Shown here: positions 28,072 to 44,456 of the stretch, piece after piece
Layout of the letters: each line of letters opens with the position of its first letter
Numbering within the stretch: position 1 is the first letter of the stretch
Assembly (NCBI RefSeq): GCF_020524585.1
Contig: NZ_JAIVLK010000003.1
Span: 434,001-498,000, forward strand
Reading direction: 5' to 3'
Length of the DNA: 64,000 nt
Source of the DNA: Celeribacter naphthalenivorans
GTDB taxonomy: Bacteria; Pseudomonadota; Alphaproteobacteria; Rhodobacterales; Rhodobacteraceae
Program-made: the position numbers and the translations under genes
The notes under the pieces: model-generated
The model's database searches: none
Seen by the model: only the letters and a program-made list of their open reading frames with translations
What the model was told of the DNA's origin: nothing

Positions 28072-28112
28072 AAAGGGCCTGGAAGTTACCGCTTCCGGGC
28101 CTTTGGCTTTTC
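28072..28112. terminator. Hairpin between tnsA and the Ner-like gene
   Basis: GGCCTGGAAG (28076-28085) pairs with CTTCCGGGCC (28092-28101), one pair being G-U. A and T tracts flank both sides. It should stop minus-strand transcripts from the regulator gene before tnsA, giving the tns operon its own promoter at about 27955-28065. Confidence 0.6.
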
Positions 28113-28135
28113 TGGGTATCTGTTGGTTTTTTAGG

Positions 28136-28933: not shown

Positions 28934-29030
28934 GTGCGCCAAGGTCGCGGTTTACATACTTTAATGTTATCAACTATAATATGTAATCGCCACTTTTGTG
29001 GCATCTTCTGACGACATGACGAGTAACGAA

Positions 29031-29882
29031 ATGAAGAGATTTTCTTGTAGCTTAGTGTTCTGTGGTGTTGTTGCCGCTGTCACCACGTTTCTGCCCATTA
29101 CCGCCCACGCCCAAGACAGACTGACCGAAACGCTGACGCCGGAGCCGCGCCCTTACCCCTACGCCATCCTCGACATTCAACCGGGGGCGGAGGCGATGGA
29201 CGCGGCCAGTATGTTCGGCGAGCGGATGATGCTGATCCTCGTGCCCGAACAGGTCGCGCTGCGGGTCGAGAATGGCGAGGGGCGCGCCTTTGCTCTGACC
29301 TTTGACCAGAAGCTGGTGACGCAGGGCGTGGGACTGCACACCCGAATGGGCCGCGATCCCTATGCCGAGATCACCGCTACGCTGGCGACCGAGGCCATGG
29401 GCGGGCGGGTGCTGCAAATCCGGCGCACAATTCGCGAGCCGAACGAGAACCTGCCCGAACCTGCCGCGTTAATAGCGCAGTTGGAGGAACGCTATGGCTC
29501 GCCGTCGCAACGCACGGCCTACGGTGCGACCTGGGCTTGGGGGGATGACGGCTTTATTCCCGATCTTGACGGTCAGCCGCTGCACGAGATCACGACTGTG
29601 GATCGCTTTGGCTCCCGCAAGACGACACAGTATCGGCCCTGTTCAGGCGGCTTCAGTGGCGAAGCCGAGTACCGTTTCCGCCAGCACCGCGAAACACCGA
29701 TCATGCCGGGATGCACGGCGCTGTTCTCGGTCAGCTTCAACGGCGGTGCGCAGACTTCAACCGTCAGCTTTTCGCTGACCGATTTCGACCTGATCCGCCA
29801 GCATGTGGCCGAGGTGGATCGTCAGATCATCGAGGCGCTGACGGACGACGCGCCGGTCGCACCCGCCGATATGGACCTGTGA
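29031..29882 (+). CDS. Exported protein of unknown function, 283 aa
   Basis: A signal peptide is clear (MKRFSCSLVFCGVVAAVTTF, cleavage after AHAQ near residue 28). The mature part has no membrane segment and no motif I can name. It contains paired cysteines (RPCSGGF and MPGCTAL) that could form a disulfide. ATG 29031 is chosen because it starts the signal peptide directly; ATG 29016 is possible. The gene is GC-rich, unlike the dnd genes further right, which suggests a separate origin for this part of the cargo. Confidence 0.6.
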   Translation: MKRFSCSLVFCGVVAAVTTFLPITAHAQDRLTETLTPEPRPYPYAILDIQPGAEAMDAASMFGERMMLILVPEQVALRVENGEGRAFALTFDQKLVTQGVGLHTRMGRDPYAEITATLATEAMGGRVLQIRRTIREPNENLPEPAALIAQLEERYGSPSQRTAYGATWAWGDDGFIPDLDGQPLHEITTVDRFGSRKTTQYRPCSGGFSGEAEYRFRQHRETPIMPGCTALFSVSFNGGAQTSTVSFSLTDFDLIRQHVAEVDRQIIEALTDDAPVAPADMDL

Positions 29883-29886
29883 GGCT

Positions 29887-30183
29887 ATGACCGACATTGC
29901 ATCTGAGACCCAGACCTGCCCGTTCTGCTACACCGAGATGGACGCCCGGGCAGATGTTTGCCCAAACTGTCTGGCCACCAAGGACACGACACCCGAATGG
30001 GCCAAGCGCCTGAAGGTCTACTGGTCGGCGGCTGTCGTCATATTCATCGGGCTTGCGCTTGCCTTCATAGACGGCAAGGGCATGAACTGGTGGGGGATGC
30101 CTTTTGTGGGCGTAGGCGTCTTCCTCCTGCTCAAGGCCCGCAAGGTAGACGTCTCGGATGTGATTTGGCACCGTAAGGAATAG
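29887..30183 (+). CDS. Zinc-ribbon membrane protein, 98 aa
   Basis: Residues about 11-28 form a zinc ribbon (CPFCYTEM, then CPNC). Two transmembrane helices follow: VYWSAAVVIFIGLALAFI and WWGMPFVGVGVFLLL. Proteins of this shape are small membrane-anchored sensors or adaptors; the specific role is unknown. It starts five bases after the exported protein gene, so the two are co-transcribed. Confidence 0.6.
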   Translation: MTDIASETQTCPFCYTEMDARADVCPNCLATKDTTPEWAKRLKVYWSAAVVIFIGLALAFIDGKGMNWWGMPFVGVGVFLLLKARKVDVSDVIWHRKE

Positions 30184-30194
30184 GAAGCCCTCTC

Positions 30195-30350
30195 ATGGAA
30201 ACTCATTGGATCGACAGCTCGAAGCGCAAGTCTGCTCTGGCAGCAGATGACGTGCCTTACGAAAAACAGTTCGACGGCCCATGGCGTGGGAATAAGGATG
30301 GCAAGCCTCCTTTCGGCGCGAGAGAATGTCCTGATGTGATGAGAAAGTAA
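30195..30350 (+). CDS. Small ORF, 51 aa, unknown
   Basis: ATG 30195 follows AGGAAG at a normal distance, and the frame ends in TAA at 30350, six bases before the phosphoesterase gene. The product is hydrophilic (METHWIDSSKRK at the start, FDGPWRGNKDGKPPFGARE later) and has no recognised motif. It fits neatly between two co-oriented genes, which supports translation. Confidence 0.45.
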   Translation: METHWIDSSKRKSALAADDVPYEKQFDGPWRGNKDGKPPFGARECPDVMRK

Positions 30351-30355
30351 TACTG

Positions 30356-31159
30356 ATGCCTCGTTTCTTGGTTTGGAGTGACCTGCATGATGAATTCTGG
30401 GAAGGTTTCGACTTGCCCGACCTGTCTGCACGTGTAGATGGGGTGCTGATCGCGGGCGACACCCATACGATGGGTCGCCATCTGGAAATCCCAGCACGGG
30501 CGGCGCGCAAGTATGGCTGCCCGGTCGTGGCGATCTGGGGCAACCACGAACCCTACGGTTCGATCTGGTCGGAGCTGTTGGCGGAGGAAGAGCGCCAACT
30601 TGCGGCGTTCCGCGCTGAGGGCCTCGACATCCGTGTGTTGCATGGCGCGGCCACCGAGATCGCGGGCGTGCGCATCATCGGCGCGCCTCTCTGGACCGAT
30701 CTGCAACTTTATCCCGAGTTCGACTATCTGGCCGAAATCATGGTCTCCAGCCAGATGATGGATTATCGCGCGATCCGAACCACGCCGAAGGCCAAGTTTA
30801 CGCTCGATCACATGCGAAGGCAGCACGCAAAAGACAAGAAGGCCATACTTGCTGAGCTGAGCAAGCCCCATGATGGCAAAACGGTCGTCATGACCCATCA
30901 TATGCCCGTCCGTGAGTTGATCGCCCCATGGCGAACTGTCGGAAGCAACATAAACCGCGCGCTGAACAACGCCTTTGCCAGTGACCTTTGGGACGAGGTC
31001 CGGGGCTTTGACATCCATACATGGATCTGGGGCCATAGCCATGAGGGGGAAGCCTGGACCGGCGAGGGAGATCATGGTCCGATCCGCTTTGTCACGAACC
31101 AGCGGGGGTATCCTGGGGAAGGGACTGAGTTCGATCCGGCCTGTGTGCTGGAGGTCTGA
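30356..31159 (+). CDS. Calcineurin-like metallophosphoesterase, 267 aa
   Basis: All metal-binding motifs of the family are in order: SDLH (residues 8-11), AGDTH (about 33-37), WGNHE (about 60-64), THHMP (about 180) and WGHSHEG near residue 228. Members hydrolyse phosphate mono- or diesters; the substrate cannot be told from sequence. It ends the 29031-31159 gene group. It has no signal peptide, so it acts in the cytoplasm. Confidence 0.85.
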   Translation: MPRFLVWSDLHDEFWEGFDLPDLSARVDGVLIAGDTHTMGRHLEIPARAARKYGCPVVAIWGNHEPYGSIWSELLAEEERQLAAFRAEGLDIRVLHGAATEIAGVRIIGAPLWTDLQLYPEFDYLAEIMVSSQMMDYRAIRTTPKAKFTLDHMRRQHAKDKKAILAELSKPHDGKTVVMTHHMPVRELIAPWRTVGSNINRALNNAFASDLWDEVRGFDIHTWIWGHSHEGEAWTGEGDHGPIRFVTNQRGYPGEGTEFDPACVLEV

Positions 31160-31161
31160 TA

Positions 31162-31376
31162 CGCCTAAAGACGCAACAGTGTGGAAACTGTTGGAGGCGT
31201 TGACTTCGCCCAGCTACATATACCCCTAGAACGCGTTGCAGCGTCGGGTACCCACACAAAAATCAGCTCCTGCATTGTGCCTATCGGAAACGGCTAGATG
31301 CGGCACGGGTCATCTAAACAGCGGCTCAAGCACCAAATAGCCCCATAGACTTCCAGCCTGACTTCCACTAACTTCC
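31162..31376. promoter_or_regulatory. dnd upstream region with inverted and direct repeats
   Basis: An inverted repeat (CGCCT...CAACAG and CTGTTG...AGGCG, 31162-31198) lies just after the phosphoesterase gene. It has no clear T tract. Three direct ACTTCC repeats at 31349-31354, 31361-31366 and 31371-31376 lie immediately before the dndB ribosome binding site, spaced 12 and 10 bases apart. This spacing suits a regulator binding one helical face. Confidence 0.4.
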
Positions 31377-31391
31377 GTTCAGGAGGTGCCT

Positions 31392-32477
31392 ATGGCAAAC
31401 GAACTGACCTTTGAAGCGATCCGCGGTGTGCAGTCTCGCACTGCCTACTACACCGTCATGGTTCCAATGAAAATGGTTCCTCGCCTTTTCATCTTCGACG
31501 GAGACGATCTGCCGCCCGATCTACGCGCACAACGTGTATTGTCGAAAGCGAGGGTTCCGCAAATTGCGAACTATCTGGCGGAAAATTGGGACAATTATAT
31601 TCTGTCCTCCCTTTGCGCTTCTGTCGATGGAGATCTCACATTCACGCCCGCCAGCAGTGACGGTGCACTAAAAAATGTCGGGACTCTCAGTTTTGCTATG
31701 GATGCACGTATTATCCTAAACGACGGTCAGCATCGCCGGGCGGCTATCGAAGATGCCTTGAAGACACGGCCTGCTTTAGAGAACGAAACAATATCGGTTG
31801 TTATATTTGCGGATCGTGGCCTGGAACGAAGCCAGCAAATGTTTGCCGATTTAAATATGAATGCGGTGCGTCCCTCGAATTCACTTAACATTCTTTACGA
31901 CAAGCGTGATCCTCTTGCAGGTCTCTCCGTTGAAGTGTTTCGCCAAGTCCCATTCTTTAACCGCTTTCTCGAACTCGAAAAAAAATCTCTCTCTAACCGA
32001 ACAACGAAACTCTACACCCTTTCAAGTTTGCAGCAAGCGCATGAGTGGATGGTCGGCCCTGCAGGTGATCGCTTTGGCGCTTCTACGCTCGATAAGGTCG
32101 TGCGGTTCTGGAATTCGCTTTATGACATTATGGATGATTGGCAAAGACTGGACGGCGGTAGCCTGAATGCACATGACCTTCGGCAGAATACAGTGCACTC
32201 CCATGGTGTTTTGCTGCAGTCCTTCGGTGTTCTCGGTGGTGCGCTGATCGATGCCTTTCCTGTAACATGGGCCGAGAAGCTACAATCACTGTCATCCTTA
32301 GACTGGTCACGGCGCAATGCGGCCCTTTGGGAGGGTAAGGTAATGAACGACGCGCGTATGAATGGGCAACGCAGAAGCGTTCTGCTTGGCGCCGCCGTCT
32401 TGTTTGAAACAGTCGGTTTGCCATTGGAGCCCAGAATGAAAGCTGCAATCGATGCACAGGGTCAGGTTGCCGCATGA
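31392..32477 (+). CDS. dndB: DndB, DGQHR-domain protein of DNA phosphorothioation
   Basis: The 361-aa product has the defining DGQHRRAAIEDAL motif (about residues 113-125), with SVVIFADRGLERSQQMFADLN following. In known dnd loci DndB is a negative modulator of phosphorothioation that also affects operon expression. ATG 31392 sits five bases after AGGAGG; the in-frame GTG two codons earlier is less likely. It overlaps dndC by four bases and opens the dndBCDEA operon. Confidence 0.9.
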   Translation: MANELTFEAIRGVQSRTAYYTVMVPMKMVPRLFIFDGDDLPPDLRAQRVLSKARVPQIANYLAENWDNYILSSLCASVDGDLTFTPASSDGALKNVGTLSFAMDARIILNDGQHRRAAIEDALKTRPALENETISVVIFADRGLERSQQMFADLNMNAVRPSNSLNILYDKRDPLAGLSVEVFRQVPFFNRFLELEKKSLSNRTTKLYTLSSLQQAHEWMVGPAGDRFGASTLDKVVRFWNSLYDIMDDWQRLDGGSLNAHDLRQNTVHSHGVLLQSFGVLGGALIDAFPVTWAEKLQSLSSLDWSRRNAALWEGKVMNDARMNGQRRSVLLGAAVLFETVGLPLEPRMKAAIDAQGQVAA

Positions 32478-33919
32478 GCCAAGACAAAAACACCAATATG
32501 ATTAACACCCCTCTCACCTTCGACGCACTAGAGGAGCGGATCAGAGTCGCCTATTGCAACGATAATCGACCCTGGGTCATTGGATATAGTGGCGGAAAGG
32601 ACTCGACTTGCGCACTGCAGATGATCTGGCGGGCGTTACAAGCACTACCAGCACCAGAGCGGCAGAAGCCGATTTACGTATTGAGCTCGGACACATTGGT
32701 GGAAACACCGGTGATTGTGGATTATATCGACGAGGCGCTCGCCAGGATAAATAGCTCCGCCAAGGCACAAGGAATGCCAATTACGGCACATAAGGTCCTA
32801 CCAGATGTTGGCGATAGCTTTTGGGTTAATCTCATAGGACGTGGCTATCCCGCGCCTTCGCGGCGGTTTCGATGGTGTACTGAACGTCTGAAAATTGATC
32901 CCGCGAATGCCTTTATCAAGCAACGCGTCGCCGAGTTTGGCGAAGTTGTCATGGTCCTCGGCGTGCGAAGCGCAGAAAGCGCAACACGCGCACAAGTCAT
33001 TGCACTTCATAAATTGGAGGGGAGCCTGTTTTCAAGACACTCCTCGCTTCTTGGCGCTTTTGTTTTCACACCAATCGAAGCACTCTCGGTCGACGATGTG
33101 TGGGATTATATTCTCCAAACCCCTTCTCCTTGGGGTGCGGACAACCGCCAACTTCTGAAAATGTACCGCAACGCTCAAGCAGGCGAATGCCCGCTCGTGG
33201 TCGATAAAAATACAGAAAGTTGCGGCAATTCGCGATTTGGATGCTGGGTATGCACCGTCGTAACAAAAGATAAAGCTATGGAAGCGATGGTCGACAACGG
33301 CGAAGAGTGGCTTGAACCGCTGTTGGAAGTCCGCGACTTTCTGGCTGAAACGCTTGACCCGGAACGGAAGAAAGTTGTCCGTGATTATAGAAGGCGAACA
33401 GGACGGGTCACACTCAATCGTTCTGGCGATGGATTGATACCAGGCCCGTACAAGTTCGAGTTCCGTCAGGAAGTTTTAAAGCGACTGCTTGAAGCCCAGA
33501 AAGAAGCCGCCAACCTTGTTGTGGGCGAGCCTGCGCCGACACTCATCCATGAAGTCGAAATCCATGAAATTCAACGCATTTGGCGCAGAGAATTGGGAGA
33601 TTGGAGCAACACCGCATATCGGATCGTGAAGGAAGAACTAGGCAAAGACCTTTTCGCTCATAAAGCGGATGACTTTGAGTTTTCGTCGCGAGACGGTGAC
33701 ATCCTGCGGCAGGTTTGCGATGAGCACGAAGTTCCATTGCAGCTACTGAGTGAGTTACTTGATGCTGAACGATCGGTTCAAGGGATGCGCCGCCGCACGT
33801 CTATCCACAGCAGGATCGCCAACATCCTCGAGAAAGAATGGCGCCCAGAAGAAGAAGTGCTCGCTGATTTGGCGATCGACACAGAAGAGGACGAACCTTC
33901 GGAAGAAGGACTAGTTTGA
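32474..33919 (+). CDS. dndC: DndC, phosphorothioation sulfurtransferase
   Basis: DndC is a PAPS-reductase-like N-type ATP pyrophosphatase with an Fe-S cluster. It passes sulfur toward the DNA backbone. The P-loop SGGKDST is at residues 39-45. A cysteine set (CPLVVDKNTESCG, then FGCWVC) at about 238-262 is suited to the cluster. Length is 481 aa, normal for the family. It overlaps dndB by four bases and dndD by one base. Confidence 0.93.
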   Translation: MSQDKNTNMINTPLTFDALEERIRVAYCNDNRPWVIGYSGGKDSTCALQMIWRALQALPAPERQKPIYVLSSDTLVETPVIVDYIDEALARINSSAKAQGMPITAHKVLPDVGDSFWVNLIGRGYPAPSRRFRWCTERLKIDPANAFIKQRVAEFGEVVMVLGVRSAESATRAQVIALHKLEGSLFSRHSSLLGAFVFTPIEALSVDDVWDYILQTPSPWGADNRQLLKMYRNAQAGECPLVVDKNTESCGNSRFGCWVCTVVTKDKAMEAMVDNGEEWLEPLLEVRDFLAETLDPERKKVVRDYRRRTGRVTLNRSGDGLIPGPYKFEFRQEVLKRLLEAQKEAANLVVGEPAPTLIHEVEIHEIQRIWRRELGDWSNTAYRIVKEELGKDLFAHKADDFEFSSRDGDILRQVCDEHEVPLQLLSELLDAERSVQGMRRRTSIHSRIANILEKEWRPEEEVLADLAIDTEEDEPSEEGLV

Positions 33920-35859
33920 TGAAGTTCAGCGAAATAACTCTCGAAAATATTGGCCTCTACGTCGGGAAGCATAGTTTCAATCTCGAGACCACGCCCGCAG
34001 ACGGATCCAATGTCGTTGCTATTCTTGGGCACAATGGCGGCGGCAAGACCACCTTTCTGGACGCAATCCGGTTGGCTCTCTACGGCCGTAGAGCGCTCGG
34101 ACCAAGGACCGCTCAGTCGACTTACGAAGATCATCTTCTAAGGAAAATCAGCGCAACAGCCTCTTCCCGTGACGCTGCGATCACGCTTTCATTTGAGAGA
34201 GTGGAGAATGGGCAGGACGTATCTTACTCGGTCACCAGAGCATGGTCAGCCAGAGGCAGGTCGATTGTCGAAAGTCTGGACCTTGTAAGGGAAGGTCAAC
34301 CAATCTTGGATTTGGACCGCACTGAATATGCTCAGTACGTCGAAGAACTGGTGCCCTTTGGTCTCTCCCAACTGTTCTTCTTCGACGGGGAGAAGATCCA
34401 GGAGATTGCGGACGAGGACGGCAGCGTCGGCCTGCGAGATGCCATTCGCTCTCTCCTCGGGTTGGACATTATCGATCAATTGCATACTGACTTGACGGTC
34501 TATACTAGCCGCCGGGCTGACCAAGACACATCAGGGAACATCGAGCGTTTGCTCGCGGAGCGTGAAACTCTTCAGAAAGAGCTCGCGGCTCAACAAGATC
34601 TTCGCGCCGAACTACAAAGCAAGTGCGATCAAGCGGCCAGGCGCGTAGAGCGATCAGAAGCCGCATTTCGTAGCGAAGGCGGCCGTCATGCACGTTCGCG
34701 CGAAGAAGTGCTTGCGAGGCTTCGTTCAGCTGAAGAGGGTCAGGCCGAGCTGAGCGCACAGCTGAAGCGCGGAGCAAATGAGCTCTTGCCGCTGAGCTTG
34801 GCCCCAGTGTTGGTGCAAAAGCTACATCGCAAAGCCAGCGAGGTACGACGGGGAAATTACTCGCACGCCATCAAGGATTTCATCGACGCGTTCGAAAAAC
34901 ACTGTCGCACCGGCCGTCCAACAATGGGCCTTTGGTCTGACGATCACTTTGACGACCTTCGATCAGATGTCAGCACAGAAGGTGGGGAGCGGAATGTGCA
35001 CCTCTGGGCTGAGCCGGATTGGATTCTTCAACGACTTAGTCAGCTCAGTGACGGCCGCCAAGACCTAATGGCACAGCTTGCGGTTAAGCTTGACCGGAAT
35101 CGCGAACTCAAAGCGAAGCTAAAGAGGGAGCTGGATGGTTTCGACACGGGACAAGCAGAACAGGCCCTTGCAGAGCTAAAAGAGGCAGAGCGAACACTCG
35201 GAGGGCTGGAGCGTGATCTGCATCTCCGTGATGAAGAAATCGAACGAAAGATGCGAGAACTGGACACGCTCGAGCGCCGTTTCACGCACGAGGAAAATGC
35301 GCTCAAGAAACTGGCCCAAGAAGAGAGAGGTTCCGATCTCGCTCTACGTGCTCAAGCCGCGCTTTCATCTTTCGGCAGTGCTTTGCTGAACGATCGGATC
35401 CACCGCCTACAAACGGAATTCGTTTATTGTTTCAATCGCCTAAGCCGCAAGAAGTCCTTGGTTTCCAACGTGGAAATTGACCCAAGCGACTTCAGCGTGA
35501 TCCTGATCGGCACTGACGGCGTTGCCATCGAGAAGAGCAGCCTGTCAGCAGGAGAACGTCAGATATATGCGATTTCCATGCTTTGGGCGCTCGGCAATAC
35601 GAGCGGCCGTCAATTGCCGATCGTCATTGATACCCCCTTCTCGCGGCTCGACCAGACTCATCGGCTCTCCATTGTGAGAGACTATCTGCCGACGGCAAGT
35701 AGCCAAGTTATCTTGCTTTGCACCGATACAGAGATGACGCCACCTCTCGCCGAGTGCCTTACGCCACACATCGCCCGGACCTACAAACTTGAAGCGACTA
35801 CGGAGGCCAGGAGAACCTCAATCTTCTCCGTCAGTGATCTGTATGAGGAACTCGCCTGA
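33919..35859 (+). CDS. dndD: DndD, SMC-like ATPase of phosphorothioation
   Basis: The 646-aa product has Walker A GHNGGGKTT (residues 38-46), a long charged coiled coil (about 200-440), the ABC signature LSAGERQIYA and Walker B LPIVIDTPFSRLD. DndD ATPases are thought to open or shape DNA for sulfur insertion. ATG 33919 shares its A with the dndC stop; the TTG three bases earlier is unlikely. The stop overlaps the dndE start. Confidence 0.93.
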   Translation: MKFSEITLENIGLYVGKHSFNLETTPADGSNVVAILGHNGGGKTTFLDAIRLALYGRRALGPRTAQSTYEDHLLRKISATASSRDAAITLSFERVENGQDVSYSVTRAWSARGRSIVESLDLVREGQPILDLDRTEYAQYVEELVPFGLSQLFFFDGEKIQEIADEDGSVGLRDAIRSLLGLDIIDQLHTDLTVYTSRRADQDTSGNIERLLAERETLQKELAAQQDLRAELQSKCDQAARRVERSEAAFRSEGGRHARSREEVLARLRSAEEGQAELSAQLKRGANELLPLSLAPVLVQKLHRKASEVRRGNYSHAIKDFIDAFEKHCRTGRPTMGLWSDDHFDDLRSDVSTEGGERNVHLWAEPDWILQRLSQLSDGRQDLMAQLAVKLDRNRELKAKLKRELDGFDTGQAEQALAELKEAERTLGGLERDLHLRDEEIERKMRELDTLERRFTHEENALKKLAQEERGSDLALRAQAALSSFGSALLNDRIHRLQTEFVYCFNRLSRKKSLVSNVEIDPSDFSVILIGTDGVAIEKSSLSAGERQIYAISMLWALGNTSGRQLPIVIDTPFSRLDQTHRLSIVRDYLPTASSQVILLCTDTEMTPPLAECLTPHIARTYKLEATTEARRTSIFSVSDLYEELA

Positions 35860-36233
35860 TGCATTTCACAAAACTCAAAGTGTCATCAGAAGCCACCGGT
35901 CGCCTAAGAATGTTGCGGCAACGCAGCGGCCTTACGCCAAACCTATTGTGCCGAATGGCGCTAACCTCATCGCTGGAAATGGGGCCTGTAGGCGGAATGG
36001 CTACACCTGAGGAGAGCGGACAAGAATTCAACGCGTACACGTTGTTCGGATCTGATCAACCAATTTTCCTGTCCCTTCTCTCGCTTGTTGAGACAAGTGA
36101 CGACGAAGAGCTAGACGACGAAGAGCTTTTACGCCGCCTGCGGTGCCATATAGACCGCGGCATAGGTTATATCGCCATACGCATCGACACACCTGCCGAT
36201 GCAGCCAGGCTGCTATCCGGGGAGGCCGCATGA
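35859..36233 (+). CDS. dndE: DndE, nicked-DNA-binding protein of phosphorothioation
   Basis: The 124-aa product carries the DndE pattern: LKVSSEATGRLRMLRQRSGL, then NLLCRMALTSSLE, and a C-terminal helix near CHIDRGIGYIA. DndE binds nicked DNA and is required for phosphorothioate insertion. It overlaps dndD by one base and dndA by four bases. An acidic insert (DDEELDDEELL) precedes the C-terminal helices. Confidence 0.9.
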   Translation: MHFTKLKVSSEATGRLRMLRQRSGLTPNLLCRMALTSSLEMGPVGGMATPEESGQEFNAYTLFGSDQPIFLSLLSLVETSDDEELDDEELLRRLRCHIDRGIGYIAIRIDTPADAARLLSGEAA

Positions 36234-37402
36234 CCCGAGCTCCAATCTATCTCGATCACAATGCCTCTACTCCCGTAGACGAAATGGTCATCGCCAAGAT
36301 CGTCGCGGCGATGCGCGAATTGCCAGCCAATCCATCTGCAGTAGATCATCGCGAAGGAGCTGCCGCCTCAGCTGCCGTTGAGAACGCCCGCGAGCGAGTA
36401 GCGAAGGGGATCAATGCGAGATCTGCCGACATCATCTTCGTGAGTGGCGCGACCGAGGCCAACAACCTGGCAATTGTCGGTGCGATGCAAGCCACGAACA
36501 AGACGGGCCGTAGCAGGATCGTGACCGTCGCAACAGAACATCCATCAGTACTCGAAGCAGCCAAACACGTTGGTGCCACTGACGAGATCGTCGTGCTCCC
36601 CGTTGACGAACAAGGACAGATCGACCTCGATTCACTTGAAGCTGAGCTTAAAAGAGGCACAACACTTGTCAGCTGCATGGCCGCGAATAATGAAACAGGA
36701 GTCTACCATCCCCTTTCGGAAATCGGGCAGCTTTGTGAAAAGTACGGCGCTCTCTTTCACTGCGACCTTACCCAACTGACAGCATACCGCCCCATCGACG
36801 TCCAGTCGTCTAATATTCACCTCGCAAGTCTCTCCGGTCACAAAATGTACGGCCCCAAGGGAACGGGTGCACTCTATTGCCGTCGCCGGCGCCCTCACGT
36901 CGCGCTTGAACCAATCCTCCGAGGGGGTGGCCAAGAGCGAGGGCTGCGCTCTGGCACGCTCAATACGCCTGGGATCATCGGGTTAGCGGCAGCTTTCGAG
37001 GTGAGAGAACCGCGGTTAAAGAAAGCCGCCAGTATCGCTGATCTTCGCGACACCTTGGAGCGACGACTTGTCCGGGAAACAGGCGCCTTCGTAAATGGTG
37101 GCGAGTCTAATCGCCTACCCAATACCGTCAACCTATCCATTCCCGGCATTGAACCACTAGCGCTCATGAGACGGCTGAGTAAGCAAATTACTTTCTCGAG
37201 CTCCAGCGCCTGTTCTACGCAGTCAGTACAAGACTCGCACGTTCTTGAAGCTATGTTCGGACCCAACACTGAGCGAACGAAATGCGCATTTCGCCTCGGT
37301 CTTGGCTTCGGAACGACGAAGGACCAAGTCGAGACTGCCGCTGAACTATTTATCGAAGCGGTTTCCGGCATTCGTCAGGGCCGCGTAGGGAGCGCCGCCT
37401 AA
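36230..37402 (+). CDS. dndA: DndA, cysteine desulfurase
   Basis: DndA mobilises sulfur from cysteine for the Dnd pathway. The 390-aa product begins YLDHNASTPVDE. It has the PLP-site blocks GATEANNLA, CMAANNETG, HCDLTQLT and the lysine motif SGHKMYGPKGTG, and the catalytic Cys in SSSACSTQS. ATG 36230 follows GGGGAGG; the longer frame from 36143 lies inside dndE. Carrying its own desulfurase makes the transposon-borne pathway independent of host IscS. It ends two bases from the convergent DUF262 gene. Confidence 0.92.
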   Translation: MTRAPIYLDHNASTPVDEMVIAKIVAAMRELPANPSAVDHREGAAASAAVENARERVAKGINARSADIIFVSGATEANNLAIVGAMQATNKTGRSRIVTVATEHPSVLEAAKHVGATDEIVVLPVDEQGQIDLDSLEAELKRGTTLVSCMAANNETGVYHPLSEIGQLCEKYGALFHCDLTQLTAYRPIDVQSSNIHLASLSGHKMYGPKGTGALYCRRRRPHVALEPILRGGGQERGLRSGTLNTPGIIGLAAAFEVREPRLKKAASIADLRDTLERRLVRETGAFVNGGESNRLPNTVNLSIPGIEPLALMRRLSKQITFSSSSACSTQSVQDSHVLEAMFGPNTERTKCAFRLGLGFGTTKDQVETAAELFIEAVSGIRQGRVGSAA

Positions 37403-37404
37403 CT

Positions 37405-39231
37405 TCAGAAATTCAAATCGAAGATCCTCATTGCTTGCGCCGTCAAGGCCTCTTGGCGCGCGCTCGCTTGGTCGGCACCCCATTCCTCATTCTCAGCCAA
37501 GACTTGATTGATCTGCAGGCGGGACTCCTGCAAAATCGCCCGCTTGTTATGGAAAGGTCTATTGCCCGCCCGGTTGTTTTCATCCTCGCTAAGCAATGTC
37601 AGATTTCCAATCTTGTGCAGATGAGGCAGCATCTCCAATCCCGCCTCTTCGGGATTTTGTGGGCTGACATGCTCCAAAGTCATGGCCCGAATGTCGATCG
37701 ATACATTCGGGGCCATCACAGTTGGTCGGCCGTTTGCTTGGCCGTTGTACCAAGCCAACATGAACTCTGAAATAGCCAGAAGGTACTTTAGCTCCTTCTT
37801 GTTCTTGTCGTAGTCCAATCCATCAAGCTGGCGCTTCAGCGCTTCAGTGGTCGCATAGCGATCCAAAAGATCTCGCAAGATTGCCTCCAGATCCGCGAGG
37901 CGATACTCGTTTGGAGTATCTCTAACCTTCGTGATCATCGGGCCGATTTTTCGATCGTATTCGGCGATCCTGGCGCGCGCCAACACCCCATAGCGAAACG
38001 CAAACCGCTCTAGGACGCACACCAAACGTTCTTGATGGTCTGCGCGCAGACTTTGGGCTGCATAGACGAGTGGGAGTATCCAAAGTTGCTTCAAATCACG
38101 AAGCGTGTAAGCAAGCCTCTCTGACATAACCGGTGACAGGTTCAACCCGCCACCAACGATGTTTCCTTCAGCGAGGGCGCTGATCTTCAGCATGTCCGTT
38201 TTGAGAGCTTCAACTCTCTGGACGAGAGCTCTGGCGTCTGCGGCCCCCAGCAACTCGCCGCTCGCGAGCTCCTCAAAGTGCATTGCCTCGAATTCAGTGG
38301 ATGTGCGGGCGATATTGAAACGCCGCCCCGTCCGCGCTTGGTAGGCAAGCACAAGGTAATCATCGGGATTAGGAGCGATGCCACTTATTTCCTTCCATGC
38401 AGCAGCCAGCTGGTCTTTCTCCGCCGCCTCGAGCCTTTGACCGGCCCGCTCCATTGTGGTTGCACGCAGGAGATCACAGTCACTGACAGGCAAGCCTCTG
38501 TTGTTCAGAACCCTAAATATAAGACTCGCGTGTTCGGGGGCATTTGCCTCGATGTGCACCACCTCCCAGTCTTCGAGGGCGCTTGCGTAGAACTGGTTCA
38601 GCGCATTGAATTCACGCTCAGGCGAACCCGTGGCATCCCGCCGCTCCTGAAGCATAGCGAAACATGCTTCATATGCTGCTGCAAGCCGCCTATGCGACGG
38701 AGCTAGTGCTTGCACATCATCTCCTCTCAAAAGCCCTTTGAAAACAGCATCATCAGTATCATTCAAGGTTAACGGATAGACATCCTTGGTTTCCATGAAA
38801 TCTAGGTCTTTGTTCATGATGAAGCGCGAAAAGAGTGTTTCCGCCATCGTCGACAACGCTGATGCGAGCGCCGGAGAGCCCTCGCGAAATAATTCAGAAG
38901 CCGAGAGGCAATGTTGGCGCAAGGACGCGACAAATAGCAGGAAGGTGGCAAAGCGCTGCTGTCCATCAATGACTTCTCTTCTGGGGCGGACCAAGCCGCC
39001 TGGGTCTTTTGGTGAAGTGACGACTGAGCCGAAGAAATGCCGTTCACGCTCACCATTTATTCGTCGCTGCCAACAACGCCGCACATCGTCAATGAACGCA
39101 TCGATTTGCTCATTTTCCCATTCGTAGGCACGCTGGTAGGCGGGTACGCGAAAGAGTGTCATACCACCAAAAAGGGCAGACACCGTGGTCGGCGTGGCGC
39201 GCTGGCACAGCAGATCTGAAACTTTTTCCAT
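37405..39231 (-). CDS. DUF262/DUF1524 protein, SspE/GmrSD-like nuclease
   Basis: The 608-aa product has the DUF262 NTPase features YQRAYEW (32-38) and DGQQRF (89-94). Its C-terminal DUF1524 HNH-type region (about residues 520-575) contains LEHVSPQNPEE, then KIGNLTLLS and NRAGNRPF. Family members include SspE, which acts with phosphorothioate modification, and GmrSD, which cuts modified phage DNA. Here it stands tail to tail with dndA and is the last gene of the five-gene convergent operon, 11 bases after the 172-aa gene. A role as phosphorothioate-sensing nuclease is inferred from family and place. Confidence 0.85.
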   Translation of the reverse strand: MEKVSDLLCQRATPTTVSALFGGMTLFRVPAYQRAYEWENEQIDAFIDDVRRCWQRRINGERERHFFGSVVTSPKDPGGLVRPRREVIDGQQRFATFLLFVASLRQHCLSASELFREGSPALASALSTMAETLFSRFIMNKDLDFMETKDVYPLTLNDTDDAVFKGLLRGDDVQALAPSHRRLAAAYEACFAMLQERRDATGSPEREFNALNQFYASALEDWEVVHIEANAPEHASLIFRVLNNRGLPVSDCDLLRATTMERAGQRLEAAEKDQLAAAWKEISGIAPNPDDYLVLAYQARTGRRFNIARTSTEFEAMHFEELASGELLGAADARALVQRVEALKTDMLKISALAEGNIVGGGLNLSPVMSERLAYTLRDLKQLWILPLVYAAQSLRADHQERLVCVLERFAFRYGVLARARIAEYDRKIGPMITKVRDTPNEYRLADLEAILRDLLDRYATTEALKRQLDGLDYDKNKKELKYLLAISEFMLAWYNGQANGRPTVMAPNVSIDIRAMTLEHVSPQNPEEAGLEMLPHLHKIGNLTLLSEDENNRAGNRPFHNKRAILQESRLQINQVLAENEEWGADQASARQEALTAQAMRIFDLNF

Positions 39232-39242
39232 TTTAATCGACG

Positions 39243-39761
39243 TTACCCAATTTCACTTCTAAGTATGTCCTGGTAGCGGATCAGAAAATTCGATGGGTCC
39301 GATGGCTTTGGTCCCATTCTGCTTCTGAGCAGTTCAAATCCGCCGGCGGCATACAGATTCAAAATGTGCATGCCCTCCGCCGATAAACGCGTAGGGGAGG
39401 CAACCTGAAGAAGCTTCGCGATCGACCTCTCAAGTTGCTGTTCAGAATAGTCTTCAGAATGAAGGGCCGTTACTTCCGCATCTACCAACAATCCTGCGAT
39501 ATACTCACGGTATGGTTCATACTCATTTGGATAACTCGCAAGGAAGTTTGCTCCGTCGAGCATTTCACTTGTGCCCGTCTTTCTGCAAGAAAGACCAAGC
39601 ATTAGCCCCGCGTAATATGCATCAAAAAGGATGAGTGACCCTCGAGTCGCATCTGATGACTTTGTTCGGCCGAACATTCGCTGATCGACATAATCGAAAT
39701 ATATGCGGGCCTCTTTGTGGAGCACAAATCCGCGCGCCCGAGCATTTTGATCAAGTGTCAT
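39243..39761 (-). CDS. Unknown 172-aa protein of the convergent dnd-linked operon
   Basis: I do not recognise this protein. It is soluble and mostly alpha-helical by composition, starting MTLDQNARARGFVLHKEARI. Its start overlaps the end of the ATPase gene by four bases, so it is probably made in step with that protein and may be its partner subunit. It has no cysteine pair, membrane segment or catalytic motif that I can name. Confidence 0.7.
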   Translation of the reverse strand: MTLDQNARARGFVLHKEARIYFDYVDQRMFGRTKSSDATRGSLILFDAYYAGLMLGLSCRKTGTSEMLDGANFLASYPNEYEPYREYIAGLLVDAEVTALHSEDYSEQQLERSIAKLLQVASPTRLSAEGMHILNLYAAGGFELLRSRMGPKPSDPSNFLIRYQDILRSEIG

Positions 39762-41698
39762 ACCGATGTTCTCCCGCTTTGGAATTGGAAGAATGCGTTC
39801 TTGCTGTCATCTATCTTTACGGATCCGTCCGATTGATCGATTGAAGCTGTTATAAATTGGGTGTCTGCACGCCTTTCGAAAGAATCGGCAAAGCCCTCAC
39901 GCTCACTCGAAATGACGAAAATGATAAGTTGGTCAAAGATCTTCGGGATCAATGCCCCAACGTTCTGCCGCAAAACCAGGTCTAAGGAGACTGCCGGAGA
40001 GTCGACAATGAAGGGAAGCCGAGCTGGCGCTTCCGCCAAGAGGGCGGTCAAGAAAGCATAGCAAACCGCGAGCTTTTGCCCTTCACTCGCACTATCTTTC
40101 GGGAGGTTTTCTTCGTTAACAAGATGCAGACGGCCGTCGATCCTGGACACACGAATGATCTCATTGTCCAGAATCTTTTCCAGCTGAACGTTTGTTCGAT
40201 CCTTGACGAACACCTGAAGCCGTTCTTTTGAGAGTTTCCGCGCGCGCCTCGCTGCAAGGATCAGCTTGTCCGCAGCTGTAAAGTAGCGATTATTCTCGCT
40301 GGCTGTTTCGTACGCCTTCCTCCGCTCCTTTTCCATTTCTCGGCAAGCGGGAAGGTTTCGCTTCCAGTCCGCCTCATCAAGCGAAATAGGCACATCCGTC
40401 AGAAAGCGGAGAGCCTGATCTTTTCTGGCCTTTTCCGCCGAAAGCTCGCCTTTTTCAGATGTGAGCCTCTCTACTTCCTCCATGCCAGCTTGCGCTTTCT
40501 CGATATCCAGGCGCGCTCGCTCTTGTCCGACCGAGGTCAGCCGATCTTCGGCATCGCTCAGGTCTTTGATCACCTCGGAGAAGGAGCGCCGATCGACACT
40601 GTCCGTAAGCTTGTAACGGATATCATTGATGACGCTTACTTGCTCGTCACCTAGATGGTCGTCAGCATGCGAAAGAATATGGCTCCGCTTCTCGTCATCC
40701 AATTCGACGCCGCAAACGCACCTGTCTTGCACTGCGAGATCTTCGAAAAAGGATCTAGAGGATCTCGGCAACCTTTTTTCTTTTAGCGTCTCACTTAAGG
40801 TGTTTAGTCTCGCGACAACAAAAGTGTGGAGACTTAGTGGGGAGCGAAAGCTCGAAATCGCACTGCTGGAATATTTTGCGATATCACTACTGGCAGATCG
40901 ACTTCGATCATCAATATCCTTCTGCCTCTCCTGAAACTCCTCGTTTTCGTAACCCAACTCGCGGCAGCGGTCGTCGATCTCGTTTAATCTTCCGTCAATT
41001 CTTTCGAGAGCACGATCAAGCGACACTTTTTCCTGATTGAGCTTAGCAAGAACGTCCTTCGCTTCGATGTACTCTCGCTCAAGTCGATTTACAGCCGCTT
41101 GTTCAGAAGCAGTGGTTACTTCCCTGTTTCGCTTCTTTCGATTACCTTTAAGGGTCTCTATTTGGCCGATAAGATCATCAAAAGAATCAGTTCTATATAG
41201 CGCCTCAATCGCCTTATCCGCAGCAGCGGCGCCATCTTTGAGCATATCTTTTGCAAGTTCACCATCAAAGACGAACAGATCAATACTTCGACTCAAAGCT
41301 GAGGCTAACGGTGGATCAATTGAGCTTAGGAGGTGTCCAGATTGCTTACCGCTCTGGACGGTTGTTGTGTAGAAATAGTGACGCCCCATCTCAAAATCGA
41401 AATCAATCCGAAACGCCAGCCTTTCTCCAGAAACCATAAGAATGAGCTCGAAATATCCCTCCTTAGTGGTTCGGTCAGCCTGCAACGCTGAAATCGAAAG
41501 GGATTGATCCAGACGGCCCGTTAGGGCCGACCGCAAAAGCGCCATCGTCGTGGTTTTACCCGTTCCGTTTGGCATTTGCAGAAGGACGTGACTGTATTTA
41601 CCCGGATCAAGAGCGACACTGGCATCGCGCAAATAGCCGCGCAGTCCCTTTGCGTTCCAACCTAGAACAAGAACGTTATTACTTGTCACGTTGAGCAT
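39758..41698 (-). CDS. SMC/DndD-like ABC ATPase of the convergent operon
   Basis: The 646-aa product has Walker A MPNGTGKTTT near residue 45, a coiled coil (about 190-260), and a central CVCG with following histidines (near residues 327-345) that may bind metal at the coiled-coil bend. A second coiled coil, the signature-like SASEGQKLAVCY and Walker B LPFIVDSPAVSLD follow. It is distinct in sequence from DndD. It resembles the ATPases that pair with helicases in several defence systems. Overlaps of 20 bases with the upstream 67-aa gene and four bases with the downstream gene show coupling. Confidence 0.8.
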   Translation of the reverse strand: MLNVTSNNVLVLGWNAKGLRGYLRDASVALDPGKYSHVLLQMPNGTGKTTTMALLRSALTGRLDQSLSISALQADRTTKEGYFELILMVSGERLAFRIDFDFEMGRHYFYTTTVQSGKQSGHLLSSIDPPLASALSRSIDLFVFDGELAKDMLKDGAAAADKAIEALYRTDSFDDLIGQIETLKGNRKKRNREVTTASEQAAVNRLEREYIEAKDVLAKLNQEKVSLDRALERIDGRLNEIDDRCRELGYENEEFQERQKDIDDRSRSASSDIAKYSSSAISSFRSPLSLHTFVVARLNTLSETLKEKRLPRSSRSFFEDLAVQDRCVCGVELDDEKRSHILSHADDHLGDEQVSVINDIRYKLTDSVDRRSFSEVIKDLSDAEDRLTSVGQERARLDIEKAQAGMEEVERLTSEKGELSAEKARKDQALRFLTDVPISLDEADWKRNLPACREMEKERRKAYETASENNRYFTAADKLILAARRARKLSKERLQVFVKDRTNVQLEKILDNEIIRVSRIDGRLHLVNEENLPKDSASEGQKLAVCYAFLTALLAEAPARLPFIVDSPAVSLDLVLRQNVGALIPKIFDQLIIFVISSEREGFADSFERRADTQFITASIDQSDGSVKIDDSKNAFFQFQSGRTSV

Positions 41699-41882
41699 CC
41701 TCTTCGAGGATAAGTTCTATTGTACCCTCAATCCTATGTGGTGGAGGCAAAGCTCCTAACGTCGCATTCAGCAATCGCTCCGTGGACTGCTGAACCGAAA
41801 TGTTGTGAGAAACTTTTTTGGAAGCCTCTGCGATCGCAGCTGCAATTTCTTGTGCAGCCGTGGTCTGATCCGGACCATTCAT
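41679..41882 (-). CDS. 67-aa protein of the convergent operon, unknown
   Basis: This small acidic, helical protein (MNGPDQTTAAQEIAAAIAEA at the start, TIELILEEDAQRDK at the end) overlaps the helicase gene by four bases and the ATPase gene by 20 bases. Conserved coupling on both sides argues that it is real. It could be an adaptor between helicase and ATPase; no family is recognised. Confidence 0.6.
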   Translation of the reverse strand: MNGPDQTTAAQEIAAAIAEASKKVSHNISVQQSTERLLNATLGALPPPHRIEGTIELILEEDAQRDK

Positions 41883-43771
41883 AGTTCTTCCCTCCGCGTC
41901 CCGCTCAGCTCAGCAAGCCACTCATAACGTCTAATGTCAGTCGTGTCGCTGTCATCTTCATCGCCGAAATCGATAAAATCCAATACATGCGCTCTTTTAT
42001 TGACGTTGCTAGGATCGGTACGCAAGCAACGACCAAGTCGCTGGATGGTTTCGAGCTTGGCCCGCGCAGATGAAAACAGAACAATATTCCTGACAGATTT
42101 AATGTCGATGCCTTCAGATAGGCGATGGCAACTCACCAAACAATCGAGCTTCCCCTGGGCAAAATCCAACAATCGCTGCGGCTCATCTCCTTCGTAATAG
42201 GTGCCAAAGACAATGCCCGCTTCCAAAAGATACCTCTGGACCAGTTCCCCGTATTTTCGTGTTTCTACGAATATCAGAGATCTCTCATAGAGCTCAGGGT
42301 TTGCCGCTAGGTGGTCCTTGAAGGGCTCCAACTTCTCAGTCGTAACCTTTCGAACACGTGACAGCTCGCGATAGAGCGCTTCATCACTTACAACTTCACC
42401 CGCCGCTTTTTTTCCGTGATGTCGTTTGATCAAGTTTCGAATTTCCACCCGATCTTCATCCGATAATTCGTACTCCAAGGCGGTGTAGTCGAACTCACAC
42501 AGGATGCCCCTACGAATTGCATCTTCAATTTCAAATTTAAAGATGACTGGGCCGATTTCCGTTTCGATGAAACCGTTTCCAACTTCATCATACTCTCTCT
42601 CTGGTGTTGCGCTCAGCCCCAATCGATATCCAATCGGAGAAACCCATCCGGTCAGAGAGCTGACCTGCGCGGGAGACCCGAACCCATGCACCTCATCACA
42701 AATTATGAGAGTTCTTTCTAACGTACCATCAACGCTGGAAAGGAAATCTGACAAGTAGCTTTGAGAAACAAGCAACAGTCTCCTTCCGCGACTGGCGACA
42801 AATCGCGGCCCTTCCCGGTTTTGACCAAAATGGCGATAGATCCGGTAGGCGCTGTCCGTCACCATTGCTTGGAACCATTGTTCTAGCAGGTCATTTCCCC
42901 GCATCGTTACAATGACAGTATCCACTAAGTTTAGAGACGTGAGCTTTTCGATGATGCGAAGTGCGGTTCGCGTCTTTCCAGTTCCGGTAGCCATTTCAAG
43001 CACACCGTTCTTTTTGGACAAGAAGCACTCAATCGCGTCGTCTTGGTGGCGCCACCTGCTATCAGCTTTGTCTTGTCGTTCGGAGCGACGGCTCGGTCGA
43101 TAAAACTGCGCTAGGTTGCCGCGGATGGCTTCGGGAATATCGAAGCATCGGACATTCGGGTCGCTGTTAGTCCAGAGCCGCTCAAAACGTTTTCGATGCG
43201 ACTCAACCCGCGAGGCATCTCGTGGGTCCGCCCAGCTCAGGAAGACGTCAAGGCTTTCAAAATTTCTGCGCCCTTGCTCGGTTTCATTTTGAGAACCGTG
43301 GAACACAACACTATCACCAGTATAATCCCTAAAAATTCCGAGTTTGGGATGATAATCACCACTTAGCTTGCCGGTTGGGACGGCCAAGCGGACAGTCAGA
43401 AGCTTTTCGGCAATCATGTAGGAGAGTGTTTGGACGGGTTTGGAACTCGCGCTTTGTGCAAGTTCGTCCACCTCTTCTCTCAGCGCTTGGAGGAGCACCT
43501 CGTCGTCGATCGCATCCGAGCCTTGTTTGATCGCTGCCCAGTCTTCAGGCTTAAGCTTAGGACTGGTCAGTAGTCTCATTGTTCCGCCGTTTTGCGCGAA
43601 ACCTGCGATCCCAGTCGCCACCCGTTGTAGCCAACCTGAAGTGAAATACCCCACACCCCGGTCATAGGACACCGAATGAGCAAGGCACGGATTCATCAGC
43701 ACCTGATCGATGTCATCCTTCGAGGTGTCAACGTCAGATGGAAAGGTTAGAGATCTCAGGGATTTGTTCAT
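41879..43771 (-). CDS. PLD-nuclease/SF2 helicase fusion protein
   Basis: The 630-aa product begins with a phospholipase-D-like nuclease domain (about residues 15-190). Its signature is YHPKLGIFRD followed by FHGSQNETEQG. An SF2 helicase follows, with motif I MATGTGKTRTA, motif II ICDEVHGFGS, motif III GLSATPERE and motif VI IQRLGRCLR. This layout occurs in restriction-like defence enzymes. ATG 43771 has AGGA about eight bases upstream; in-frame GTG 43789 and ATG 43786 are alternatives. It is the first gene of the convergent operon, so its promoter should lie at 43775-43900. Confidence 0.85.
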   Translation of the reverse strand: MNKSLRSLTFPSDVDTSKDDIDQVLMNPCLAHSVSYDRGVGYFTSGWLQRVATGIAGFAQNGGTMRLLTSPKLKPEDWAAIKQGSDAIDDEVLLQALREEVDELAQSASSKPVQTLSYMIAEKLLTVRLAVPTGKLSGDYHPKLGIFRDYTGDSVVFHGSQNETEQGRRNFESLDVFLSWADPRDASRVESHRKRFERLWTNSDPNVRCFDIPEAIRGNLAQFYRPSRRSERQDKADSRWRHQDDAIECFLSKKNGVLEMATGTGKTRTALRIIEKLTSLNLVDTVIVTMRGNDLLEQWFQAMVTDSAYRIYRHFGQNREGPRFVASRGRRLLLVSQSYLSDFLSSVDGTLERTLIICDEVHGFGSPAQVSSLTGWVSPIGYRLGLSATPEREYDEVGNGFIETEIGPVIFKFEIEDAIRRGILCEFDYTALEYELSDEDRVEIRNLIKRHHGKKAAGEVVSDEALYRELSRVRKVTTEKLEPFKDHLAANPELYERSLIFVETRKYGELVQRYLLEAGIVFGTYYEGDEPQRLLDFAQGKLDCLVSCHRLSEGIDIKSVRNIVLFSSARAKLETIQRLGRCLRTDPSNVNKRAHVLDFIDFGDEDDSDTTDIRRYEWLAELSGTRREEL

Positions 43772-43789
43772 GGGACGATCCTGCATCAC

Positions 43790-44294
43790 ACAGGAGGGAT
43801 TTGGAAGGTTGAAATGTGCAACGACGTGCTACCCGGGGGCTGATGCAGTGACTGCCCTTCCGATGAGATCAATGGGTCCTGAGCCTAGAACAAACAACCC
43901 GGTTTTGCCGAGGTTCCAGTCGCGATCGAAGAGACGGAGAGCAAGTGTCGGGCTGCGGTAGCGTCCCTCGCATGATGCTCAAGGGGCGCCTCGGCGTGCA
44001 GGCCAATATCATCAGTCCAATAGGTCTCAATGCTCAGTTGCAACATTGTCGCCGCGTTTCGAGGACCGCTTTGTCCACATTGCTACCGCGATGAAGCGAA
44101 TACTTCTTCGATGCCGGTTGAACGACAGTGTATGAGAGGGCGTGGCTGCGCAGCAACTGCTCGGCTTGACGGCTGGCACGGGCCGTTGATCGGCGCCGCG
44201 TTGCCTAAGCCCCTATGATGACTGACCGCCGGGACGGCGCAGAATCGAAAGCTTGATCGAATTAATGCCATGCTCACAGGGTAAATTGCCTTCA
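43790..44294. other. Non-coding stretch between the defence operon and transposon right end
   Basis: No gene can be supported here. The left part probably holds the promoter for the helicase-led operon. Short open frames lack ribosome binding sites and recognisable products. Confidence 0.5.
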
Positions 44295-44363
44295 ATGGAC
44301 AAAAACTCTGTCACAAATGGACAGAAACCTGTCACAAATGGCCAAGTCAGGTGTCACCCGACA
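44295..44363 (-). repeat. Transposon right end with three transposase-binding repeats
   Basis: On the minus strand R1 is 44338-44357, R2 44317-44335 and R3 44295-44314. Each reads GTGACA, 5 or 6 bases, then a close match to TTGTCCAT. The three are packed two bases apart, unlike the spread-out left end. Repeat lengths (20, 19, 20) mirror those at the left end. Confidence 0.85.
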
Positions 44364-44380: not shown

Positions 44381-44456
44381 TGGTGAGCCGTGCAGGATTC
44401 GAACCTGCGACCCACTGATTAAAAGTCAGTTGCTCTACCAACTGAGCTAACGGCCC
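44381..44456 (-). tRNA. tRNA-Lys(UUU)
   Basis: The minus strand folds as a standard tRNA: acceptor GGGCCGT/ACGGCTC, T-loop TTCGAAT, encoded CCA, and anticodon loop CTTTTAA with anticodon TTT at 44421-44423. The transposon ends just beyond its 3' end and leaves the tRNA intact, so it is the likely attachment gene. Confidence 0.95.

What the first reader, a model, noticed from the sequence alone, without database searches (positions are those of the whole stretch)
37405..43771. Five-gene operon facing dndBCDEA in place of dndFGH
The dnd modification genes are complete, but no DndF, DndG or DndH is visible. Instead a tightly overlapping operon runs toward them: PLD-helicase, 67-aa protein, SMC-like ATPase, 172-aa protein and DUF262/DUF1524 protein. 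Overlaps indicate one functional unit. It may be a little-described phosphorothioate-linked restriction module. A four-gene PbeABCD partner of archaeal dnd genes is known to me by name, but I cannot say whether this is its counterpart.
Basis: partly seen in the sequence, partly recalled or inferred. Interest (0 to 1): 0.88.

Follow-up and report, generated by a model that had tools for sequence, protein, structure and literature searches.

The report
Two sulfur-sensing DNA defences in one operon
A bacterium related to Roseobacter carries, inside a jumping DNA element, genes that put sulfur marks on its own DNA, facing a five-gene operon that looks like two already described kinds of weapon against unmarked viral DNA; the parts are known, and the joining of the two is the modest new point.

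Summary
The first four are PbeABCD, the phosphorothioate (PT)-linked cassette of archaea and bacteria: PLD-helicase, small protein, CxC-type ABC ATPase, and PbeD, whose predicted fold matches DndE. The fifth gene falls in one clade with DndI of Salmonella (DUF262/HNH nickase; PADLOC "Orf5") and keeps the seven DndI landmark residues checked. DndF and DndH models found nothing in the genome. Of 87 non-redundant PbeA loci, the DndI-like gene is in 10 of 35 with dnd genes and 0 of 52 without; in 7 of the 10 it directly follows PbeD. Genome samples searched with the fifth gene gave three members not used in the profile: all have dnd, two have Pbe. So it follows the PT writer and is best read as a second restriction arm, not an obligate Pbe subunit. 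The whole set is cargo of a 22.8-kb Tn7-like transposon with intact ends beside tRNA-Lys. Most likely action: one PT writer, two PT-aware effectors. New variant of a known kind; no function tested.

The parts
31386..32477 (+). dndB, regulator of the PT writer
   Evidence: PADLOC DndB 1.1e-128, TIGR03233 401.6 bits, cut-off 328
32474..33919 (+). dndC, sulfurtransferase; specificity-loop triple Ser-Arg-Arg before Cys135; residues 408-453 match the Sp-DndD small-protein family
   Evidence: TIGR03183 536.3 bits; Pfam PF20306 41.3 bits against cut-off 27.2
33916..35859 (+). dndD, ABC ATPase of the writer
   Evidence: TIGR03185 477.6 bits; Walker motifs present
35859..36233 (+). dndE, DNA-binding partner of DndD
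   Evidence: TIGR03184 and PF08870 above cut-offs
36230..37402 (+). dndA, cysteine desulfurase
   Evidence: PADLOC DndA 1.7e-126; SSACS motif. TIGR03235 352.5 bits is below its cut-off of 480
41879..43789 (-). PbeA: N-terminal PLD (HxK...GSxN) nuclease-like domain + SF2 helicase (start GTG 43789 or ATG 43771)
   Evidence: PADLOC PbeA 3.7e-194; H147, K149, G165, S166, N168 and main helicase motifs invariant in the nine aligned sequences, window included
41679..41882 (-). PbeB: 67-aa small protein, by position
   Evidence: no library hit itself; same place and size as PbeB; small proteins of L041 and L042 match Pfam Sp-CxC, that of L052 (50 aa) does not
39758..41698 (-). PbeC: CxC-type ABC ATPase (CVC at residue 327, Walker A/B, SEGQ)
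   Evidence: 30-37% identical to PbeC of Halorubrum, Priestia, Methylobacterium; motifs
39243..39761 (-). PbeD: DndE-fold protein, probable DNA-binding partner of PbeC
37405..39231 (-). Orf5/DndI-like: DUF262 NTPase with P30-Y32-Q33 and DGQQR 89-93, plus DUF1524 HNH nuclease (H521, N552)
   Evidence: PDB 9jfl DndI E 2e-37 over residues 18-605; clade with DndI 100/100
37403..37404 (.). 2-bp junction between the convergent stops of dndA and the DndI-like gene
   Evidence: coordinates
21590..44363 (.). Tn7-like transposon carrying the whole PT system
   Evidence: 12-bp exact terminal inverted repeat (17 of 20 over 20 bp), 5-bp duplication TCACA; only such pair in the window
27257..28039 (-). TnsA-like endonuclease
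   Evidence: PF08722 2.4e-06, 28.4 bits, cut-off 26.5
25086..27260 (-). TnsB-like transposase (weak match, below cut-off)
   Evidence: PF13683 4.6e-04, 20.3 bits, cut-off 26.5, and gene order
24077..25144 (-). TnsC/TniB-like ATPase
   Evidence: PF05621 6.8e-20
22257..24080 (-). TniQ target-site protein
   Evidence: PF06527 4.5e-12
44381..44456 (-). tRNA-Lys; 17 bp lie between its 3' end and the transposon end
   Evidence: ARAGORN, sequence

Best explanation
A complete PT writer (DndBCDEA) marks host DNA, and the facing, probably co-transcribed genes encode two PT-aware effectors: PbeABCD and a DndI-type nickase. Shown by sequence or predicted fold: PbeC is an ABC ATPase related to DndD and PbeD has the DndE fold, so PbeC-PbeD is built like the writer's own DndD-DndE pair; PbeA is a helicase with an intact PLD half-site; the fifth protein is a DndI-clade NTPase-nuclease with its sensor and active-site residues kept. 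Inferred: PbeBCD scans DNA as DndCDE does, but having no sulfurtransferase it reports sites that carry no PT mark, and PbeA then translocates on that DNA and stops its replication or cuts it. Independently the DndI-like protein nicks DNA; on PT-marked host DNA its ATPase is stimulated through the Y32 pocket and it lets go. The two arms share one self-mark. Carriage in a Tn7-like transposon moves writer and both effectors together.
For: PbeA 3.7e-194 and Orf5 1362.6 bits; homology of PbeA, PbeC and PbeD to dnd-linked cassettes in Halorubrum, Priestia, Rhizobium and Methylobacterium; PbeD fold like DndE; full-length DndI match and clade; DndI landmarks P23/Y25/Q26/D83/R87/H508/N541 map to P30/Y32/Q33/D89/R93/H521/N552; Orf5 clade in 10 of 35 dnd+ and 0 of 52 dnd- PbeA loci, Fisher 4.6e-5; three members found without a Pbe query and not used in the profile, all beside dnd; no DndF or DndH; transposon ends. 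Papers: PMC6459918 (section 8 and passages read), PMC11662687 (sections 17, 19-21 and passages read).
Confidence: 0.72

Rival explanations
1. PbeABCD and the DndI-like protein form one five-subunit machine: the fifth protein is the PT-reading and cutting subunit that PbeABCD recruits, so neither works alone.
For: Direct succession after PbeD in 7 of 10 clade-positive Pbe loci, kept while the block lies convergent, divergent or co-directional to dnd; distance correlation of Orf5 with PbeA 0.79 and PbeC 0.74.
Against: 25 of 35 dnd+ PbeA loci lack it; it lies elsewhere in L108, L118 and G1297, and G1324 has it with no PbeA match in the genome; its correlation with DndD is as high, 0.81; DndI of Salmonella works with DndBCDE without Pbe (PMC11662687).
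Confidence: 0.15
2. The fifth gene is an ordinary GmrSD-type enzyme against modified phage DNA that sits in the same island by chance.
For: Pfam names are GmrSD_N and GmrSD_C; such genes are common: 44 of 390 genomes of the order match P0006 at E 0.001 or better.
Against: It falls with DndI, apart from 23 generic DUF262-DUF1524 proteins of sampled genomes, 100/100; none of those 23 shows a dnd or Pbe gene in the short flanks held (up to about 1.5 kb a side), whereas each clade member whose neighbourhood I looked at has dnd genes.
Confidence: 0.07
3. The Pbe arm kills or arrests the cell on infection (abortive), with PbeB as a restraint released by the phage, as proposed by Rakesh et al.
For: PbeA keeps a PLD half-site; proposal in PMC10853773 section 16; small, fast-changing PbeB.
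Against: In the tested archaeal system PT-marked virus escaped and Pbe without PT was not toxic, which fits discrimination by marking (PMC6459918 section 8).
Confidence: 0.2

Closest known systems
PbeABCD of Haloterrigena jeotgali A29 (PMC6459918)
   Same: Gene order helicase - 66-aa - ABC ATPase - 152-aa beside dnd genes; ResIII and helicase_C in PbeA by Pfam, PLD by NF042964 and motif
   Different: Window operon has a fifth gene, faces dnd convergently, and its writer includes dndB; no function tested
CxC ABC ATPase-DndE systems (Rakesh, Aravind and Krishnan 2024, PMC10853773)
   Same: CxC motif in PbeC, DndE-like fold in PbeD, HKD-SF2 PbeA, small protein
   Different: The word DUF262 is not in the main text of that paper (0 occurrences; figures and supplements not seen)
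DndI of Salmonella enterica Cerro 87, PDB 9jfl (PMC11662687)
   Same: DUF262 + DUF1524, full-length match, same clade, sensor and active-site residues
   Different: There it is co-transcribed with dndFGH; here it follows pbeABCD, and DndF and DndH were not found
PADLOC 'Orf5' models PDLC02686-02702
   Same: P0006 scores 1362.6 bits to PDLC02697, so the family is already held in a defence database
   Different: The database's system definition was not visible to me
Tn7-like transposons with DND cargo (PMC8649781)
   Same: TnsABC-TniQ genes, ends, site beside a tRNA; the paper's table lists 14 for DND (passage seen)
   Different: The passages seen do not tell whether Pbe or DndI genes are carried

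Membership tests
PbeABCD | Gene order PbeA-PbeB-PbeC-PbeD on one strand | tested here: met
   (PbeB by position)
PbeABCD | PbeA: PLD + SF2 helicase | tested here: met
   PADLOC 3.7e-194; HxK...GSxN and helicase motifs invariant in nine aligned sequences
PbeABCD | PbeC: ABC ATPase with CxC hook | tested here: met
   CVC at 327, Walker A/B; 26-37% identity to PbeC of L039-L043
PbeABCD | PbeB: small protein of the Sp-CxC family | tested here: inconclusive
   67 aa in the right place, no profile hit itself; the small proteins of L041 and L042 hit PF20304, that of L052 does not
PbeABCD | PbeD: DndE-like | tested here: met
PbeABCD | PT-dependent virus resistance | not testable with these tools
   needs bench work
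DndI | DUF262 + DUF1524 along the full length, in one clade with DndI | tested here: met
DndI | DGQQR, PT-sensor Tyr, HNH His/Asn | tested here: met
DndI | Gene neighbour of a PT writer | tested here: met
DndI | PT-stimulated ATPase, nicking, toxicity without PT | not testable with these tools
   needs bench work
DndI | Co-transcribed with dndFGH (as in Salmonella) | tested here: not met
   DndF and DndH not found in the genome; this is the setting of the type member, not a trait of all: 61 genomes with dndBCD and dndI lack dndFGH (PMC11662687 section 17)
DndFGH | DndF and DndH present | tested here: not met
   one model each, with positive control; DndG not searched in the genome
SspE | Closest to SspE rather than DndI | tested here: not met
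   SspE 5.6e-10 in two short pieces against DndI 2e-37
Tn7-like transposon | TnsA, TnsB, TnsC, TniQ genes | tested here: met
   (TnsB match below its cut-off)
Tn7-like transposon | TGT...ACA ends and 5-bp target duplication | tested here: met

The most novel reading that the evidence does not exclude
PbeBCD is a 'blank' copy of the writer DndCDE: PbeC and PbeD correspond to DndD and DndE, and the small protein stands where the DndC tail docks on DndD, with the sulfurtransferase left out. It would read the same sites as the writer, find them unmarked, and load PbeA, while the DndI-type protein of the same operon supplies nicks at which the helicase starts: a nick-and-unwind restriction with writer-derived recognition.
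Probability: 0.2. Interest if true: 0.7.

Novelty: new variant of a known kind. Interest (0 to 1): 0.42.

Why it matters
How PbeABCD stops viruses is unsettled: one group reports no DNA cleavage (PMC6459918), another argues for it (PMC10853773). Here Pbe is joined in one operon to a DndI-type nickase that would share the same self-mark, and the pairing recurs in several Alphaproteobacteria and one Chloroflexota contig. Deleting one arm at a time in one small portable block would tell the two effects apart. That the DndI-type gene follows the PT writer and not Pbe also says which parts can be exchanged.

Tried and rejected
PbeD by sequence: profile searches against DndE in both directions and hhalign gave nothing significant, PDB sequences nothing; only the fold showed it. 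Foldseek on the same model showed no DndE in the 50 rows listed of 230; VIA-align 2 on Foldseek's 1000 best-ranked chains did.

PbeB as a freed DndC tail: the DndC tail matches Sp-DndD and a profile of the wider small proteins (61 loci; hhalign E 8e-5, probability 61%), but the small proteins of this window's own clade (20 loci) do not (probability 0.5%). Kept as a bold reading only. The small ORFs were picked by a composition rule, so some may be wrong.

Co-evolution as a test of which module owns the fifth gene: correlations with both modules are similar and there was no host-tree control, so inconclusive.

Rows dropped: L057's DUF262 protein scored 554 bits but falls among generic ones in the tree, so it was taken out; with it the count is 11 of 35. 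L048 and L056 were dropped as near-identical to L041 and L043; L037, the same contig as L046, was left out of the count. L045 (a Listeria record, a DUF262 hit of the plasmid search) had no Pbe or dnd match and was not counted, as it was not a PbeA locus.

TIGR03238 in the own genome rang nowhere, controls included, and is not used. Promoter- and terminator-like sites were no more than in shuffles.
Full report
Observation. The window holds dndB-C-D-E-A on the plus strand (31386-37402) and, 2 bp further on, the end of five genes on the minus strand. Genes 1-4 overlap by 4, 20 and 4 bp; gene 5 follows after 11 bp. DndB, DndC, DndD and DndE pass NCBIfam cut-offs; DndA is named by PADLOC only. One DndF and one DndH model found nothing in the whole genome, while both rang on a Priestia plasmid used as positive control; DndG was not searched there. 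The host is taken to be a relative of Roseobacter, because G239 of the same family has the contig length and gene place of the record 'Uncultured Roseobacter'.

Identity of gene 5. It has GmrSD_N and GmrSD_C domains. The best solved relative is DndI, 9jfl, over residues 18-605 (E 2e-37); SspE reaches 5.6e-10 in two short pieces. In a tree with DndI and 23 generic DUF262-DUF1524 proteins, ten Orf5 proteins and DndI form one side of a branch with 100/100 support; DndI is a long branch, and an eleventh protein, from L057, falls with the generic ones. The DndI landmarks of PMC11662687 (sections 17, 19-21 and passages read) map to P30, Y32, Q33, D89, R93, H521 and N552. Tyr at the PT-sensor place is in 10 of 11 Orf5 rows (L057 counted) and 7 of 23 generic rows (Fisher 0.0024); of two later members one has Tyr, one Phe. 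PADLOC already holds this family as 'Orf5'.

Distribution. In 390 genomes of the order, a full-length match to PbeC is in 3 and a full-length match to gene 5 in the same 3, side by side (own genome included). With six plasmid loci, G029, the window and one later genome, minus two duplicates, 87 loci were scored; 'dnd' means a DndC match above 300 bits or a DndE match above 80 bits on the stretch held. A DndI-clade gene is in 10 of 35 loci with dnd genes and 0 of 52 without (Fisher 4.6e-5); for stretches of 15 kb or more 10 of 32 and 0 of 30 (8.8e-4). The profiles were built from part of these loci. In 7 of the 10 the gene directly follows PbeD, in one Chloroflexota contig (L062) it is on the same strand 710 nt after the ABC ATPase with no PbeD match between, in two it lies elsewhere. 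The block PbeABCD-gene 5 is convergent with dnd in five of those seven (window, L046, L038, L039, L155), co-directional in L052 and divergent in L051, so it moves as a block.

Test that did not start from Pbe. The gene 5 profile was run over 385 genomes of the class, 398 of the phylum and 394 of the class of the Nocardioides locus (at most three candidates scored in a genome). Six genomes carry clade members above 590 bits; the next matches listed are at 266 bits or less. Three of the six supplied rows to the profile (G000; G1072, taken as L052 from its contig length; G1107 = L108). The three new ones (G810, G1297, G1324) all have dnd genes beside the match; two have Pbe, and G1324 has no PbeA match in its whole genome. 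None of 23 generic relatives showed a dnd or Pbe gene within the short flanks held. Gene 5 thus follows the PT writer. Distances of Orf5 correlate about equally with Pbe (0.74-0.79) and with DndC, DndD and DndE (0.65-0.81), less than within DndC-D-E (0.92-0.95) or PbeA-PbeC (0.945); ten loci, no host control.

Carrier. The window has a TnsA-like, a TnsB-like (weak), a TnsC/TniB and a TniQ gene at 22257-28039. A 12-bp exact inverted repeat, TGT at the ends, flanked by the 5-bp duplication TCACA, bounds 21590-44363. It is the only such pair in the window; 60 Markov resamplings gave 0.23 pairs on average, at most 2, and none starting with TGT. The right end is 17 bp from tRNA-Lys. The two nearest relatives do not show these transposition genes on the 47.9 and 48.6 kb examined, so this carrier is not shared with them there. 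Tn7-like elements with DND cargo are in print (PMC8649781, passages read; 14 in its table).

How it most likely works. Shown elsewhere: archaeal DndCDEA-PbeABCD gives about 10^4-fold protection, needs PT, and spares PT-marked virus, without visible cleavage of viral DNA (PMC6459918); DndI nicks DNA, its ATPase rises on PT-DNA, and it harms cells without PT (PMC11662687). Inferred here: the window's writer supplies one self-mark for two effectors. PbeC-PbeD is built like the writer's DndD-DndE pair, so Pbe probably scans as the writer does. PMC12193691 (passages read) predicts that DndC residues 433-482 of E. coli B7A bind the DndD head and reports pull-downs for DndC with DndD; residues 408-453 of this DndC match the Sp-DndD small-protein family, which makes a docking role for such small proteins plausible, though this window's PbeB could not be tied to it. 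The DndC specificity triple is Ser-Arg-Arg, not one of the three classes assigned in PMC12193691, so the PT motif is unknown.

Novelty. Each part is known. A PbeABCD-DndI operon was not met in what I saw of searches for PbeABCD (10 papers), PT with SspE, DndFGH and helicase (40 of 52 listed), PbeA, PbeC and DUF262 (11 papers) and DndI, PbeABCD and Dnd (20 of 53 listed); most of these papers were seen as listings only, no supplements were seen, and the library lacks most subscription journals. Hence: new variant of a known kind.

Noticed in passing
window 21590-44363: Tn7-like transposon with intact ends and TCACA duplication beside tRNA-Lys carries the whole PT system; its transposition genes were not found around the module in the two nearest relatives
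   Followed up: yes
window 32474-33919 (DndC residues 408-453): The DndC tail matches Pfam Sp-DndD, the small-protein family of related systems, near the part predicted in print to dock on the DndD head
   Followed up: partly
window 32474-33919 (just before Cys135): DndC specificity triple Ser-Arg-Arg, shared with Rhizobium and Methylobacterium loci, fits none of the three motif classes in PMC12193691; DndI-clade genes occur with SRR, SKR and RPK triples
   Followed up: partly
window 28998-29882: 294-aa cargo gene between the TnsA-like gene and dnd, no Pfam match
   Followed up: no
window 30356-31159: Calcineurin-like phosphoesterase gene just before dndB; a relative lies in the Methylobacterium dnd locus (L039 923-1687)
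   Followed up: no
L040 (Priestia megaterium plasmid pBMG4): One plasmid carries dndBCDE, dptFGH and PbeABCD together
   Followed up: no
L042 12001-13971 and L043: Rhizobium PbeA is annotated from an internal start, leaving out the N-terminal residues that tblastn matches in the same open frame
   Followed up: no
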